A stretch of DNA of 64,000 nucleotides from Acidobacteriota bacterium (GCA_016929335.1 JAFGIY010000193.1:24212-88211); one strand, 5' to 3'. Counted from the stretch's first letter, positions 8,668-18,584 are shown. The notes: a model not told the origin generated them from the letters alone. Numbers and translations are program-made.

Positions 8668-9966
8668 CTACGCGCAGCGAAGGATGCCTCTGGCCCACAG
8701 GCAGTCGCCACAGACCGGGAAAGGATTACCCTGGCAATCTATTTCGTTTCCATCGGCGAATTCACAGCCGGAGCAATCCGTGCAGGGGGAAAATTCAAAT
8801 TTTCTCACCCGCTCACGAAAGCCTGCATAATCAGGTTGCAGCCAAATCGATTCCAGGGATTGTTCCATCAGATTCCCATATTCACAACGGCGGAAAAATT
8901 TCTTCCGGTCCCTTATATAACAGGAGTACGAATGCATCAACGGCGGGCAGGGGCTCACAGTGCCGTGGCAGGACAGTGCCAGGCTCCCCGGCCTTATGAA
9001 GGGGCAGTAGTTGTTCCGCTGATTCAGGTCGATATCGAGATAACTCAAATTGGCCTGCTGACTCGAAATGGTTGATATCGATTTCAGGGTATCCAAGCTC
9101 CAATCCATCTTGGGAAGGATCCAGTTCGGATTGCGATCACTTCCTTGACCCTCGTGGCTGGTCGGCTCCAGGCTGTAAAGAATCTCATTCTGAAGCTCGG
9201 CGGTATATGGCAGCACGTTCGAAACCAGGATGAAAGATGCCCGGATATTCTCGGCGATTTTCTGGAGCGCAGGCAATTCGTGGATGTTGCTCTTCATGGC
9301 CACAAACTCGATCCCGATTTTCAGCGGAGCCGAAGGCATCAGATCAAGCCCGTCTTTAATAGGAAATTGGAAATCAGCCGTACCGAGGAATCCAAGCTCC
9401 GAGCCGCCCGTATCCTTAATCTTTCTCAAGAAATCCTCATGCAAAGATGTTTCAATATCGAGCTGAGTCGAGCATTTTGTCGCGCTCCACCAATAGAGAG
9501 TCCGTACACTGTTTATTATCTCTTTCAGTGATGCGCCGGGCCGGACGGCGCCGTGAGATTCGTCGGACGTTCCGTCGATAGAGACGGTGAACTGATCAAG
9601 ACCGGCATCGATCAGCCGCTCCGCCAGCGGTGAGGTGAGAAGCATGGCATTGCTCGTCATCTCCGTCCGCAATCCGTTTTCATGGGCAAGCCGGACCATC
9701 TCGGGAAAACGCGGATGCAATAGAGGTTCGCCGAATCCGGCGAAGGCAATCGTCTTTGCATCTGAAAAATTCGCCAGTCCTTCCATCAAAGCCTGATAAA
9801 CGGGCCATGCCATATCCTCAAACGGCTCATCCCAGGAATGGCGAATACAGGTAACGCAGCTAAGGTTGCAGCGGTTGGTCGGCTCCACATAAATCTTTGT
9901 AAGTGGATCGACGGATTGGGCCGGAATTGGGTTTTCTTCGGTTGCATCTAATTCTGTGTGTTTCAT
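8668..9966 (-). CDS. Radical SAM/SPASM protein, likely tungsten-oxidoreductase-associated maturase
   Basis: CNLSCVTCIRHSW (CX3CX2C), Cys-rich C-terminus CTDCSGCEFADGNEIDCQGNPFPVCGDCLWARGILRC; adjacent to AOR and MoaD. Confidence 0.88.
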   Translation of the reverse strand: MKHTELDATEENPIPAQSVDPLTKIYVEPTNRCNLSCVTCIRHSWDEPFEDMAWPVYQALMEGLANFSDAKTIAFAGFGEPLLHPRFPEMVRLAHENGLRTEMTSNAMLLTSPLAERLIDAGLDQFTVSIDGTSDESHGAVRPGASLKEIINSVRTLYWWSATKCSTQLDIETSLHEDFLRKIKDTGGSELGFLGTADFQFPIKDGLDLMPSAPLKIGIEFVAMKSNIHELPALQKIAENIRASFILVSNVLPYTAELQNEILYSLEPTSHEGQGSDRNPNWILPKMDWSLDTLKSISTISSQQANLSYLDIDLNQRNNYCPFIRPGSLALSCHGTVSPCPPLMHSYSCYIRDRKKFFRRCEYGNLMEQSLESIWLQPDYAGFRERVRKFEFSPCTDCSGCEFADGNEIDCQGNPFPVCGDCLWARGILRCA

Positions 9967-10115
9967 CTGATTCCATTTCTACTTCATCCTGCCGCCCATG
10001 GCGATCACCGCTTCCCGGCTGTTACTTCGCAGTTGAGTATCCGCTTTACAGCAGGAAGCCCACCGCAGAGCATGCCTGCGGTGGGCTTCCTGTGTTGGTG
10101 CGCAGGATCTTCCGG

Positions 10116-10340
10116 TTATCCTCCCTCTAAAAAAGGATAGAGCTGGACGAAATCGCCGTCCTTTATGACGCAGTCCAACGGCGCCCAAGCCTCGTTTATC
10201 AGCACCATACCCACGTCGTTTTCCGCAAGCCCGAGTCTGGCCTCGAGCTGCGTGAGGCTGAGAGACTCACCGATATCCAGCGTCTGGCGTTTTGTGCCCA
10301 TCAGCTCAGCAAGATTCAAACCGAACTCAATCTCGATCAT
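10116..10340 (-). CDS. MoaD/ThiS family sulfur carrier protein
   Basis: 74 aa beta-grasp-like protein ending in Gly-Gly (FVQLYPFLEGG); between AOR and radical SAM genes. Confidence 0.88.
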   Translation of the reverse strand: MIEIEFGLNLAELMGTKRQTLDIGESLSLTQLEARLGLAENDVGMVLINEAWAPLDCVIKDGDFVQLYPFLEGG

Positions 10341-10362
10341 ACAGTTCCTCTAAAGCCCCGGT

Positions 10363-17209: not shown

Positions 17210-17244
17210 GCTCTGCTCCTTTAATATTCCCCGGCAGGGATAAT

Positions 17245-17514
17245 TCAGTACGGGCTGACCTGCCGTCCATGCATGTGCGGTATGACCTTGATGCATTGAA
17301 CAGGACAGTTGATCTCGCAGGTGAAGCACCAGACGCAGTCCTGCTTATAGGCGATCATCGGCTTCTCTTCCGTATCATCCCATCGCAGCACATCCACAAA
17401 ACATGCCTCGATGCAGGTTTTACAGCCGGTGCATTCTTCAAGATTGATTTCAATGTCGGCACTCACACCGCCTCCACACTCAAGTGATTTCGTAGTCCGT
17501 AATCGCCGAAGCAC
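17245..17514 (-). CDS. Two-cluster ferredoxin, AprB-like
   Basis: CTGCKTCIEAC...CVWCFTCEINCPVQCIKV; directly upstream of the flavoprotein gene. Confidence 0.88.
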   Translation of the reverse strand: MLRRLRTTKSLECGGGVSADIEINLEECTGCKTCIEACFVDVLRWDDTEEKPMIAYKQDCVWCFTCEINCPVQCIKVIPHMHGRQVSPY

Positions 17515-17612
17515 CCGATAAATCCATTCTTGGAAAGTACAGGGGGTTTTGCTATTTGTAAAATGAATCTTTTATATATATCCTGATTTAAATATTTAAT
17601 GGATGAGCAACG

Positions 17613-18584
17613 ATGGATTTTCGCAATTTTGATGTTGGCCTGCTTATAGCGCTGGATGCACTGCTCTCAGAGAAGAGTGTGACGCGTGCCGGCGAGCGGC
17701 TCCATCTGAGCCAACCGGCCACCAGCATCATTCTTGCACGTCTGCGACGCTACTTCGGCAACGATTTGCTGGTGTCTACGGGACGCAGGATGGTGTTGAC
17801 CCCTCTGGCCGAAAGCCTTGTACAGCCGGTACGCAATTGTTTGCTGCAGATCCAGCACACAGTCGCTTCCAAGGCGGAATTTAACCCCTCTATCTCCAAC
17901 CGGAGATTTTGCCTGGCGGTCTCCGACTATGTGACGGCCGTCCTGATATCACAGGCCCTTCAGGAAATTGCACGACAGGCTCCGGGCATCACATTTGAGT
18001 TGGCTCGATTGGATGAGACCATCGAACAGAGACTGGAAAAAGGCGAAATCGATTTTGTTATCCGGCCTATGGTTCACGCGTTGTCAATGCACCCGAAGGA
18101 ACCGCTTTTTGAGGATAATCACACATGTGTGGTGTGGAGCAAAAATTCGCTGATCGGGAAGAGCCTCAGCCGGAAACAGTTTCTGAGTCTGGGTCACGTC
18201 TCGGTCCATTTTGGACACGCTTCGGCAATCTTTGAGGATTGGTTTTCAACGCGCTATGGAGAGATAAGAAAAATTGAGGTTGTTGCACAGGATTTCGAAG
18301 TTGCATGCCGCCTTGTCGTGGGGACAAACAGAATTGCTACGGTTATGAGCCGGATGGCAAGGTTGTGTGCAGAGCATCTCCCGATTAGATTAATCCCTCC
18401 TCCATTTGCCATCCCAACGGTTACACATTGTCTGCAATGGCATCGTTATCAGGACCAGGATCCCGGAAGTATCTGGCTGCGAGCACTGTTAAAGCAGGTT
18501 GCGTCCAAGCTCATTCGCGTCGGTCACTCAAAGAAAGCTCCTGGTCCTCAAAATAGGGCAGCGATTATTTTGAAGGATTCTTAA
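17613..18584 (+). CDS. LysR-family transcriptional regulator (NodD/LinR-like)
   Basis: NFDVGLLIALDALLSEKSVTRAGERLHLSQPATSIILARLRRYFGNDLLV; divergent from the ferredoxin/flavoprotein operon. Confidence 0.93.
   Translation: MDFRNFDVGLLIALDALLSEKSVTRAGERLHLSQPATSIILARLRRYFGNDLLVSTGRRMVLTPLAESLVQPVRNCLLQIQHTVASKAEFNPSISNRRFCLAVSDYVTAVLISQALQEIARQAPGITFELARLDETIEQRLEKGEIDFVIRPMVHALSMHPKEPLFEDNHTCVVWSKNSLIGKSLSRKQFLSLGHVSVHFGHASAIFEDWFSTRYGEIRKIEVVAQDFEVACRLVVGTNRIATVMSRMARLCAEHLPIRLIPPPFAIPTVTHCLQWHRYQDQDPGSIWLRALLKQVASKLIRVGHSKKAPGPQNRAAIILKDS

What the first reader, a model, noticed from the sequence alone, without database searches (positions are those of the whole stretch)
8668..18584. Candidate uncharacterised anaerobic catabolic system: AOR operon beside a flavoprotein/hydrolase operon
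Two minus-strand operons sit side by side. AOR-MoaD-radical SAM (12078 to 8668) has a divergent LysR at 12502. Ferredoxin-flavoprotein/hydrolase fusion-secreted protein-hydrolase (17514 to 13413) has a divergent LysR at 17613. AOR enzymes interconvert aldehydes and acids with ferredoxin, and the second operon encodes a two-cluster ferredoxin. A route with reduction or dearomatisation, C-C cleavage and tungsten-dependent acid/aldehyde conversion is plausible. The substrate is unknown.
Basis: inference. Interest (0 to 1): 0.8.

Follow-up and report, generated by a model that had tools for sequence, protein, structure and literature searches.

The report
Flavin–hydrolase fusion for anaerobic polyphenol breakdown
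One of the two neighbouring gene groups is a conserved, apparently undescribed enzyme set found in oxygen-avoiding microbes of several phyla that probably breaks down plant polyphenols of the phloroglucinol type, while the tungsten-enzyme genes beside it appear to be an unrelated neighbour.

Summary
The window comes from an Acidobacteriota metagenome-assembled genome with 15 AOR-family genes. The joint "AOR plus flavoprotein" system is not supported. In the three genus-mates with both operons they lie apart. Other genus-mates have only one of the two, and no AOR gene lies near any flavoprotein locus found in other phyla. The AOR operon is a self-contained tungsten-enzyme unit beside putative tungstate-uptake genes.

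The other operon is a real, widespread module: ferredoxin, FAD flavoprotein with a C-terminal phloretin-hydrolase/PhlG-fold domain, and a second PhlG-family hydrolase. The hydrolase domain is fused in Acidobacteriota and Spirochaetes and a separate adjacent gene in Dehalococcoidia and Deltaproteobacteria. All four PhlG metal-ligand positions are kept in both hydrolases. In Dehalococcoidia and Actinomycetota the module sits beside orthologues of a phloroglucinol-degradation cluster (reductase, cyclohydrolase, dehydrogenase). The window's own genome carries that complete cluster on another contig.

Most likely, the flavoprotein carries out a ferredoxin-coupled redox step on a flavonoid or acylphloroglucinol-type substrate, and the PhlG domains then cleave it hydrolytically at a C–C bond. 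The pathway assignment is well supported. The exact flavoprotein reaction is inferred.

The parts
17613..18584 (+). LysR-type regulator (LysR2), divergent from operon B
   Evidence: Pfam LysR_substrate and HTH_1; 78-80% orthologues divergent from the same operon in G006 and G004
17245..17514 (-). two-[4Fe-4S] ferredoxin, probable electron partner; true start may be 17466
   Evidence: Fer4 family hits; adjacent to the flavoprotein in nearly all loci, fused or split
14963..17209 (-). fusion flavoprotein: residues 1-560 FAD (FrdA/AprA-like fold), residues ~565-748 (14963-15517) PhlG/phloretin-hydrolase-fold domain
   Evidence: Pfam; whole fusion conserved at 54-89% identity; AF2 model of the C-terminal domain pLDDT 90.8, best PDB match phloretin hydrolase 5xey; metal-ligand positions H606, E629 (neighbour E628 also invariant in the fusions), H708, E712 conserved
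14478..14861 (-). small protein with signal peptide, accessory of unknown role
   Evidence: No family; 36-41% homologues just downstream of the flavoprotein in two Deltaproteobacteria loci, not found by tblastn in the genus-mates
13413..14324 (-). stand-alone PhlG/phloretin-hydrolase family C-C hydrolase
   Evidence: PF18089 232.9 bits; PDB 5xe5 and 3hwp; H139, E172, H278, E282 present in the window protein and in 119-120 of 120 homologues
12502..13407 (+). LysR-type regulator (LysR1), between the operons; pairing with AOR not conserved
   Evidence: Pfam; no orthologue beside AOR in G004, G005, G006 or G007
10363..12078 (-). AOR-family tungsten oxidoreductase; separate unit
   Evidence: Pfam, PDB 9mqx and 1aor; conserved C-x3-C-x3-C plus G-F-C motif in orthologues
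10116..10340 (-). MoaD/ThiS-like sulfur carrier (ends GG)
   Evidence: Weak ThiS hit; conserved next to AOR in G004-G007
8668..9966 (-). radical SAM/SPASM putative tungsten-enzyme maturase
   Evidence: TIGR04317 259 bits, below its cut-off; conserved after MoaD in G004, G006 and G007

Best explanation
Operon B (ferredoxin, FAD flavoprotein fused to a PhlG-fold domain, second PhlG-family hydrolase, LysR2) is an anaerobic polyphenol module feeding a phloroglucinol pathway. Shown by sequence: the fusion, its alternative split state, the conserved metal ligands in both hydrolases, and linkage to phloroglucinol-cluster orthologues in other phyla. Inferred: the flavoprotein, with electrons to or from the ferredoxin, carries out a redox step on a flavonoid- or acylphloroglucinol-type substrate, most likely reduction of a chalcone/flavanone-type enone to a dihydrochalcone. 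The fused PhlG domain and the separate hydrolase then cleave the C-C bond between acyl side chain and ring, releasing phloroglucinol (or an analogue) and an arylpropionic or other acid. Phloroglucinol then goes to the reductase, cyclohydrolase, dehydrogenase and triacetate lyase encoded on contig C138. The AOR-MoaD-radical SAM operon is an independent tungsten-enzyme unit that happens to lie next door. My estimates are about 0.65 for the pathway assignment and about 0.3 for the specific enone-reduction step.
For: Rosetta-stone pair: the PhlG-fold domain is fused in the Acidobacteriota genus and a Spirochaetes MAG, and is a separate gene just before ferredoxin and flavoprotein in Dehalococcoidia, Deltaproteobacteria and one Actinomycetota locus. 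Fold: model pLDDT 90.8, best PDB matches phloretin hydrolase 5xey (E 4.6e-10, TM 0.72) and PhlG 3hwp. Metal ligands conserved in both hydrolases. Linkage: cyclase orthologues at 72-76% identity, with SDR 52-62% and cupin 56-64%, beside the module in L091, L094, L095, L127 and L129; SDR and cupin in L089. In L091 and L095 they lie on one strand in the order IclR, cyclase, cupin, SDR, HAD, ferredoxin, flavoprotein, then a PhlG hydrolase. The own genome has the whole cluster on C138, with a BKACE at 397.7 bits to NCBIfam's 3,5-dioxohexanoate enzyme (cut-off 430). The cyclase has the W-x-Y pair reported for dihydrophloroglucinol cyclohydrolase (Trp20/Tyr22, PMC10470551). Flavonoid degradation by reductase, phloretin hydrolase and phloroglucinol reductase is reported for anoxic Acidobacteria (PMC8084988). 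OYE-type reductases sit near PhlG-family genes in some other loci (L096, L110).
Against: Within the genus, a close cyclohydrolase orthologue was found only in the window's genome and G008; six other module-bearing genus-mates lack it. In Acidobacteriota the phloroglucinol cluster is on a different contig from the module. Y229 of PhlG is F and N132 is L in the stand-alone hydrolase family, so the substrate may differ from acylphloroglucinols. The FAD part lacks fumarate-site residues but nothing positively identifies its substrate. Identity of the C138 SDR as phloroglucinol reductase was not tested against the characterised enzyme. The genome is a MAG with 6.3% estimated contamination, although the C138 cyclase has a 94% orthologue in a genus-mate.
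Confidence: 0.55

Rival explanations
1. One reading: the AOR operon and the flavoprotein operon form one system in which AOR converts the acid or aldehyde released by the flavoprotein/hydrolase, sharing the ferredoxin.
For: Side-by-side position in the window; AOR enzymes use ferredoxin and operon B encodes one; four genus members have both operons.
Against: Not adjacent in any other genome; each operon occurs without the other; no AOR near flavoprotein loci in other phyla. Separate regulators. The AOR operon sits beside TonB, TupA-like and HTH/PBP-like genes, and another AOR in this genome sits beside TupAB-like genes.
Confidence: 0.08
2. The flavoprotein/PhlG fusion is itself a dearomatising ring-cleavage enzyme: the flavin part reduces (or oxidises) a polyhydroxybenzene ring and the fused PhlG domain hydrolyses the resulting cyclic 1,3-diketone, so it works in parallel with the SDR/cyclase pair rather than upstream of it.
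For: Most genus-mates have the module but no close cyclohydrolase orthologue; PhlG chemistry is hydrolysis of 1,3-dicarbonyl tautomers (established for the family); a second, ordinary PhlG-type hydrolase is already in the operon, so the fused domain could have another job.
Against: Where the cyclohydrolase is present in the same operon (L091, L095) the function would be redundant; all characterised members of the fold known to me cleave a side chain, not the ring.
Confidence: 0.2
3. The flavoprotein works oxidatively, dehydrogenating a flavan/dihydroflavonol- or alcohol-type substrate to an enone or diketone with ferredoxin as electron acceptor, after which the PhlG domain cleaves it.
For: Direction of electron flow cannot be read from sequence; a flavoprotein fragment lies directly beside an [FeFe]-hydrogenase gene in a Lachnospiraceae contig (L158).
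Against: Ferredoxin-coupled oxidation of unactivated alcohols is thermodynamically unfavourable; known anaerobic flavonoid pathways are reductive (PMC8084988, PMC11868195).
Confidence: 0.14
4. Operon B encodes an ordinary fumarate reductase/succinate dehydrogenase or APS-reductase-like enzyme with an incidental C-terminal extension.
For: Best annotated models are fumarate reductase and adenylylsulfate reductase flavoproteins; sources name homologues succinate dehydrogenase/fumarate reductase.
Against: All NCBIfam scores far below cut-off (best 188.6 against 587); the QFHPT histidine aligns with Tyr233 and the GERF arginine with a variable H/N/Q258; the extension keeps a complete metal site and is a separate conserved gene elsewhere.
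Confidence: 0.03

Closest known systems
Phloretin hydrolase (Phy) and 2,4-diacetylphloroglucinol hydrolase (PhlG), PF18089
   Same: Same fold and all four metal-ligand positions in both the stand-alone hydrolase and the fused domain
   Different: The fused domain is a shortened form (~180 aa) attached to an FAD flavoprotein; in the stand-alone protein Tyr229 is Phe and Asn132 is Leu
Flavanone/flavanonol-cleaving reductase plus Phy route of gut and wetland anaerobes (Fcr-Phy-PGR)
   Same: Proposed order of events: reduce, hydrolyse the C-C bond, pass phloroglucinol on (PMC8084988, PMC11868195)
   Different: The redox partner here is a ferredoxin-linked FrdA-fold flavoprotein fused to the hydrolase instead of the NADH-dependent reductase of the gut route
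Phloroglucinol degradation cluster of Clostridium scatologenes (PGR-DPGC-TfD-TAL)
   Same: The own genome (C138) has SDR, cyclase-family enzyme, 3-hydroxyacyl-CoA dehydrogenase, BKACE and CtfAB; orthologues lie beside operon B in other phyla
   Different: The operon-B module itself is not part of the published pathway; in Acidobacteriota the cluster is on another contig
AprAB / fumarate reductase FAD subunit plus ferredoxin
   Same: FAD fold, and a small two-cluster ferredoxin gene beside it
   Different: Fumarate-site residues not conserved; extra hydrolase domain; scores far below family cut-offs
Tungsten AOR with MoaD-like and radical SAM maturase genes (TIGR04317 type)
   Same: Gene set and AOR domains of operon A
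   Different: Short AOR clade with C-x3-C-x3-C in place of C-x2-C-x3-C; radical SAM below the curated cut-off

Membership tests
PhlG/phloretin hydrolase (PF18089), protein 13413-14324 | Full-length family match | tested here: met
   232.9 bits against cut-off 22.7, profile positions 5-223 of 223
PhlG/phloretin hydrolase (PF18089), protein 13413-14324 | Metal ligands H129, E160, H270, E274 (PhlG numbering) | tested here: met
   H139, E172, H278, E282 in the window protein; the same residues in 119-120 of 120 homologues; that these bind the metal is recalled from the PhlG structure paper
PhlG/phloretin hydrolase (PF18089), protein 13413-14324 | Substrate-pocket residues Y121, Y229, N132 | tested here: not met
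   Y121 kept, Y229 is F, N132 is L; so not claimed to be a DAPG hydrolase in substrate
PhlG fold, C-terminal domain of the flavoprotein | Fold and metal ligands | tested here: met
   30.8 bits against 22.7; best PDB match 5xey; H606, H708, E712 in 22 of 22 and E629 in 21 of 22
Fumarate reductase/succinate dehydrogenase | Catalytic His (QFHPT) and Arg (GERF) | tested here: not met
   Aligned with Tyr233 and variable residue 258; NCBIfam scores far below cut-off
APS reductase (AprA) | Family score and APS-binding residues | tested here: inconclusive
   TIGR02061 91.9 bits against cut-off 641.75; active-site residues were not compared
Phloroglucinol degradation cluster (contig C138) | Cyclase-family DPGC with Trp20/Tyr22 | tested here: met
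   W21 and Y23 in the same W-P-Y motif; W20/Y22 in L101
Phloroglucinol degradation cluster (contig C138) | Triacetate acetoacetate-lyase of the BKACE family | tested here: inconclusive
   NF053538 397.7 bits over full length, just below the 430-bit cut-off
Phloroglucinol degradation cluster (contig C138) | SDR-family phloroglucinol reductase | tested here: inconclusive
   SDR at the right place; characterised PGR sequence not available for comparison
AOR family | AFOR_N and AFOR_C domains and four cluster cysteines | tested here: met
   Both domains far above cut-off; four conserved Cys but with C-x3-C-x3-C spacing
Joint AOR/flavoprotein system | Conserved neighbourhood | tested here: not met
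All enzymes above | Catalytic activity and substrate | not testable with these tools
   Needs purified protein

The most novel reading that the evidence does not exclude
A ferredoxin-linked FAD reductase and a metal-dependent retro-Claisen hydrolase fused in one polypeptide form a previously unknown, oxygen-independent flavonoid or phloroglucinol-ring cleaving enzyme, spread (fused or as adjacent genes) across Acidobacteriota, Spirochaetes, Chloroflexota, Actinomycetota and Deltaproteobacteria, that replaces the gut-type NADH flavanone reductase in sediments and digesters and channels its intermediate directly to C-C cleavage.
Probability: 0.35. Interest if true: 0.72.

Novelty: new variant of a known kind. 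Interest (0 to 1): 0.56.

Why it matters
How polyphenols are broken down without oxygen is an open question for peat and sediment carbon storage. If the module does what its linkage suggests, it gives a genetic marker for flavonoid degradation in uncultured anaerobes whose flavoproteins are now annotated as fumarate reductases. It also offers a concrete two-domain enzyme to test. Removing the AOR operon from the proposal keeps follow-up work from chasing the wrong gene.

Tried and rejected
Joint AOR/flavoprotein pathway: rejected on neighbourhood and phylogenetic profile. Fumarate or APS reductase reading: rejected on scores and, for fumarate, catalytic positions. AF2 model of the whole fusion from 11 close sequences was poor (pLDDT 47.8) and was not used; the domain alone with 22 diverse sequences gave pLDDT 90.8. 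Promoter and terminator scan gave no more sites than shuffled sequence (8 against 7.6, 10 against 11.1), so no weight is placed on it. Literature searches for the fusion returned nothing relevant among open papers; absence there is not proof of novelty. Phylogenetic profile of the cyclohydrolase within the genus does not track the module and is listed as evidence against.

Full report
Check of the observation. The genes are present at the stated coordinates with the stated families. Two corrections: the flavoprotein starts at 17209, because homologues begin with the same short N-terminus, and the ferredoxin may start at 17466. The window lies on contig C4 of a 6.5-Mb assembly with 15 AOR-family genes. 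Relatives bear names of Acidobacteriota MAGs from groundwater-, Zodletone- and AS06-labelled assemblies (the habitat reading of those labels is mine).

The two operons are separate units. LysR1 lies between them, convergent with operon B (6 bp between stops) and divergent from AOR. In the genus, AOR orthologues (81-84%) occur in G004, G005, G006 and G007 (a fragment in G002); flavoprotein orthologues (73-80%) occur in G001, G003, G004, G006, G007, G008 and G009. In the three genomes with both, the operons are on different contigs with enough flank to exclude adjacency: G006 flavoprotein mid-contig in 169 kb, G007 with 15 kb of downstream flank, G004 with about 9 kb on each side of AOR. Among the flavoprotein loci from the named-genome scan, none holds an AOR match at E 1e-4. 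The AOR operon's conserved partners are MoaD and radical SAM, with a ThiF-family gene next to it in G007. In the window it is followed by an HTH/PBP-like regulator, a solute-binding protein with a partial TupA match and a TonB receptor. Another AOR of this genome sits beside TupAB-like tungstate transporter genes. The simplest reading is a tungsten-enzyme unit that happens to be next to operon B here.

Operon B is a conserved module. The 748-aa fusion is found at 54-89% identity in about 90 protein clusters. In the genus the order is LysR2 divergent from ferredoxin-flavoprotein-hydrolase, or hydrolase-ferredoxin-flavoprotein. In a Spirochaetes MAG (L089) the fusion is kept at 70% identity. In Dehalococcoidia (L092, L094, L127, L129), Deltaproteobacteria (L093, L096) and an Actinomycetota locus (L098) the C-terminal domain is a separate gene immediately before ferredoxin and flavoprotein. 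A homologue of the small secreted protein follows the flavoprotein in L093 and L096.

The C-terminal domain. Sequence search gives PF18089 at 30.8 bits. A model built from 22 diverse homologues has pLDDT 90.8 and its best PDB matches are phloretin hydrolase 5xey/5xe5 and PhlG 3hwp, ahead of the wider Bet v 1/aromatase-cyclase fold. PhlG's four metal ligands (positions recalled from its structure paper, residue types checked) correspond to H606, E629, H708 and E712 and are conserved in 22, 21, 22 and 22 of 22 sequences. The stand-alone hydrolase keeps all four in practically all of 120 homologues, while Y229 is F and N132 is L. Both are therefore expected to be metal-dependent C-C hydrolases; a strict DAPG substrate is not claimed.

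The FAD part. It is FrdA/AprA-like by family but far below every curated cut-off. The fumarate-site histidine aligns with an invariant tyrosine (Y233) and the arginine with a variable residue. Its reaction cannot be read from sequence.

Link to phloroglucinol. In L091 and L095 (Actinomycetota) one strand carries IclR, cyclase, cupin, SDR, 3-hydroxyacyl-CoA dehydrogenase, ferredoxin, flavoprotein and, further on, a PhlG-type hydrolase. In L094, L127 and L129 (Dehalococcoidia) SDR, cyclase and cupin are divergent from the module. In L101 (Clostridia) cyclase and BKACE directly precede the PhlG-fold gene and a ferredoxin. In L093 an acetoacetate-CoA ligase precedes it. The own genome has orthologues of these genes as a complete cluster on C138: CtfB, CtfA, BKACE, cupin, SDR, cyclase, 3-hydroxyacyl-CoA dehydrogenase, IclR. 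This is the gene set described for anaerobic phloroglucinol degradation (PMC10470551), including the W/Y pair of the cyclohydrolase. Adjacency to a cyclase at 72-76% protein identity in two phyla other than the window's (with a partial case in a third, L089) is not expected by chance, though the Dehalococcoidia loci are related to one another.

Mechanism. Shown: domain composition, fusion/split states, metal sites, gene linkage. Inferred: substrate class and order of steps. The best-supported reading is a redox step by flavoprotein and ferredoxin followed by PhlG-type hydrolysis, feeding phloroglucinol into the C138 pathway. Comparable logic (reductase, phloretin hydrolase, phloroglucinol reductase) is reported for Acidobacteria in anoxic wetland soil (PMC8084988), with a different reductase. 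The main weakness is that six genus-mates have the module without a close cyclohydrolase orthologue, which leaves room for the rival that the fusion opens the ring itself.

Novelty. No paper found in the searchable library describes this fusion. The chemistry belongs to a known kind (anaerobic flavonoid/phloroglucinol catabolism); the ferredoxin-FAD-PhlG architecture is a new variant of it.

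Noticed in passing
L164 (G000 contig C138, 2307-8881): Complete candidate phloroglucinol degradation cluster in the window's own genome, outside the window.
   Followed up: yes
G000, 15 loci: Fifteen AOR-family genes in one Acidobacteriota MAG, an unusually large set; several paralogues are shared within the genus.
   Followed up: partly
window 10363-12078; L072, L074, L075, L078, L082: A short (~570 aa) AOR clade has conserved C-x3-C-x3-C instead of the C-x2-C-x3-C cluster motif of Pyrococcus AOR.
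   Followed up: partly
window 3643-8033: TonB receptor, TupA-like solute-binding protein and HTH/PBP-like regulator downstream of the AOR operon, a possible tungstate or molybdate uptake and control locus.
   Followed up: partly
L081 (G000 C58, 9793-10419): A second, distant (31-34%) PhlG-fold mini-domain gene in the same genome, directly after an FMN-reductase-like gene.
   Followed up: no
L100, L102-L104, L109, L112, L116-L119: Stand-alone PhlG-fold mini-domain genes in Lokiarchaeota, Freyarchaeota, Jordarchaeum, Helarchaeota and Bacillus cereus-group genomes, with no flavoprotein of this family nearby; function unknown.
   Followed up: no
L158:7-2232: End of a homologous flavoprotein gene directly followed by an [FeFe]-hydrogenase gene in a Lachnospiraceae contig.
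   Followed up: no
L128 and L110, L096: OYE/FadH-type ene-reductases (BaiCD-like in L096 and L110) near PhlG-fold genes in Oscillospiraceae, Dehalococcoidia and Deltaproteobacteria, as in known flavonoid pathways; the L128 one is assigned by sequence clustering only.
   Followed up: partly
window 16-1382: Membrane protein resembling an arsenite permease and a low-molecular-weight phosphatase/ArsC-like protein at the window's left end, judged by eye only.
   Followed up: no
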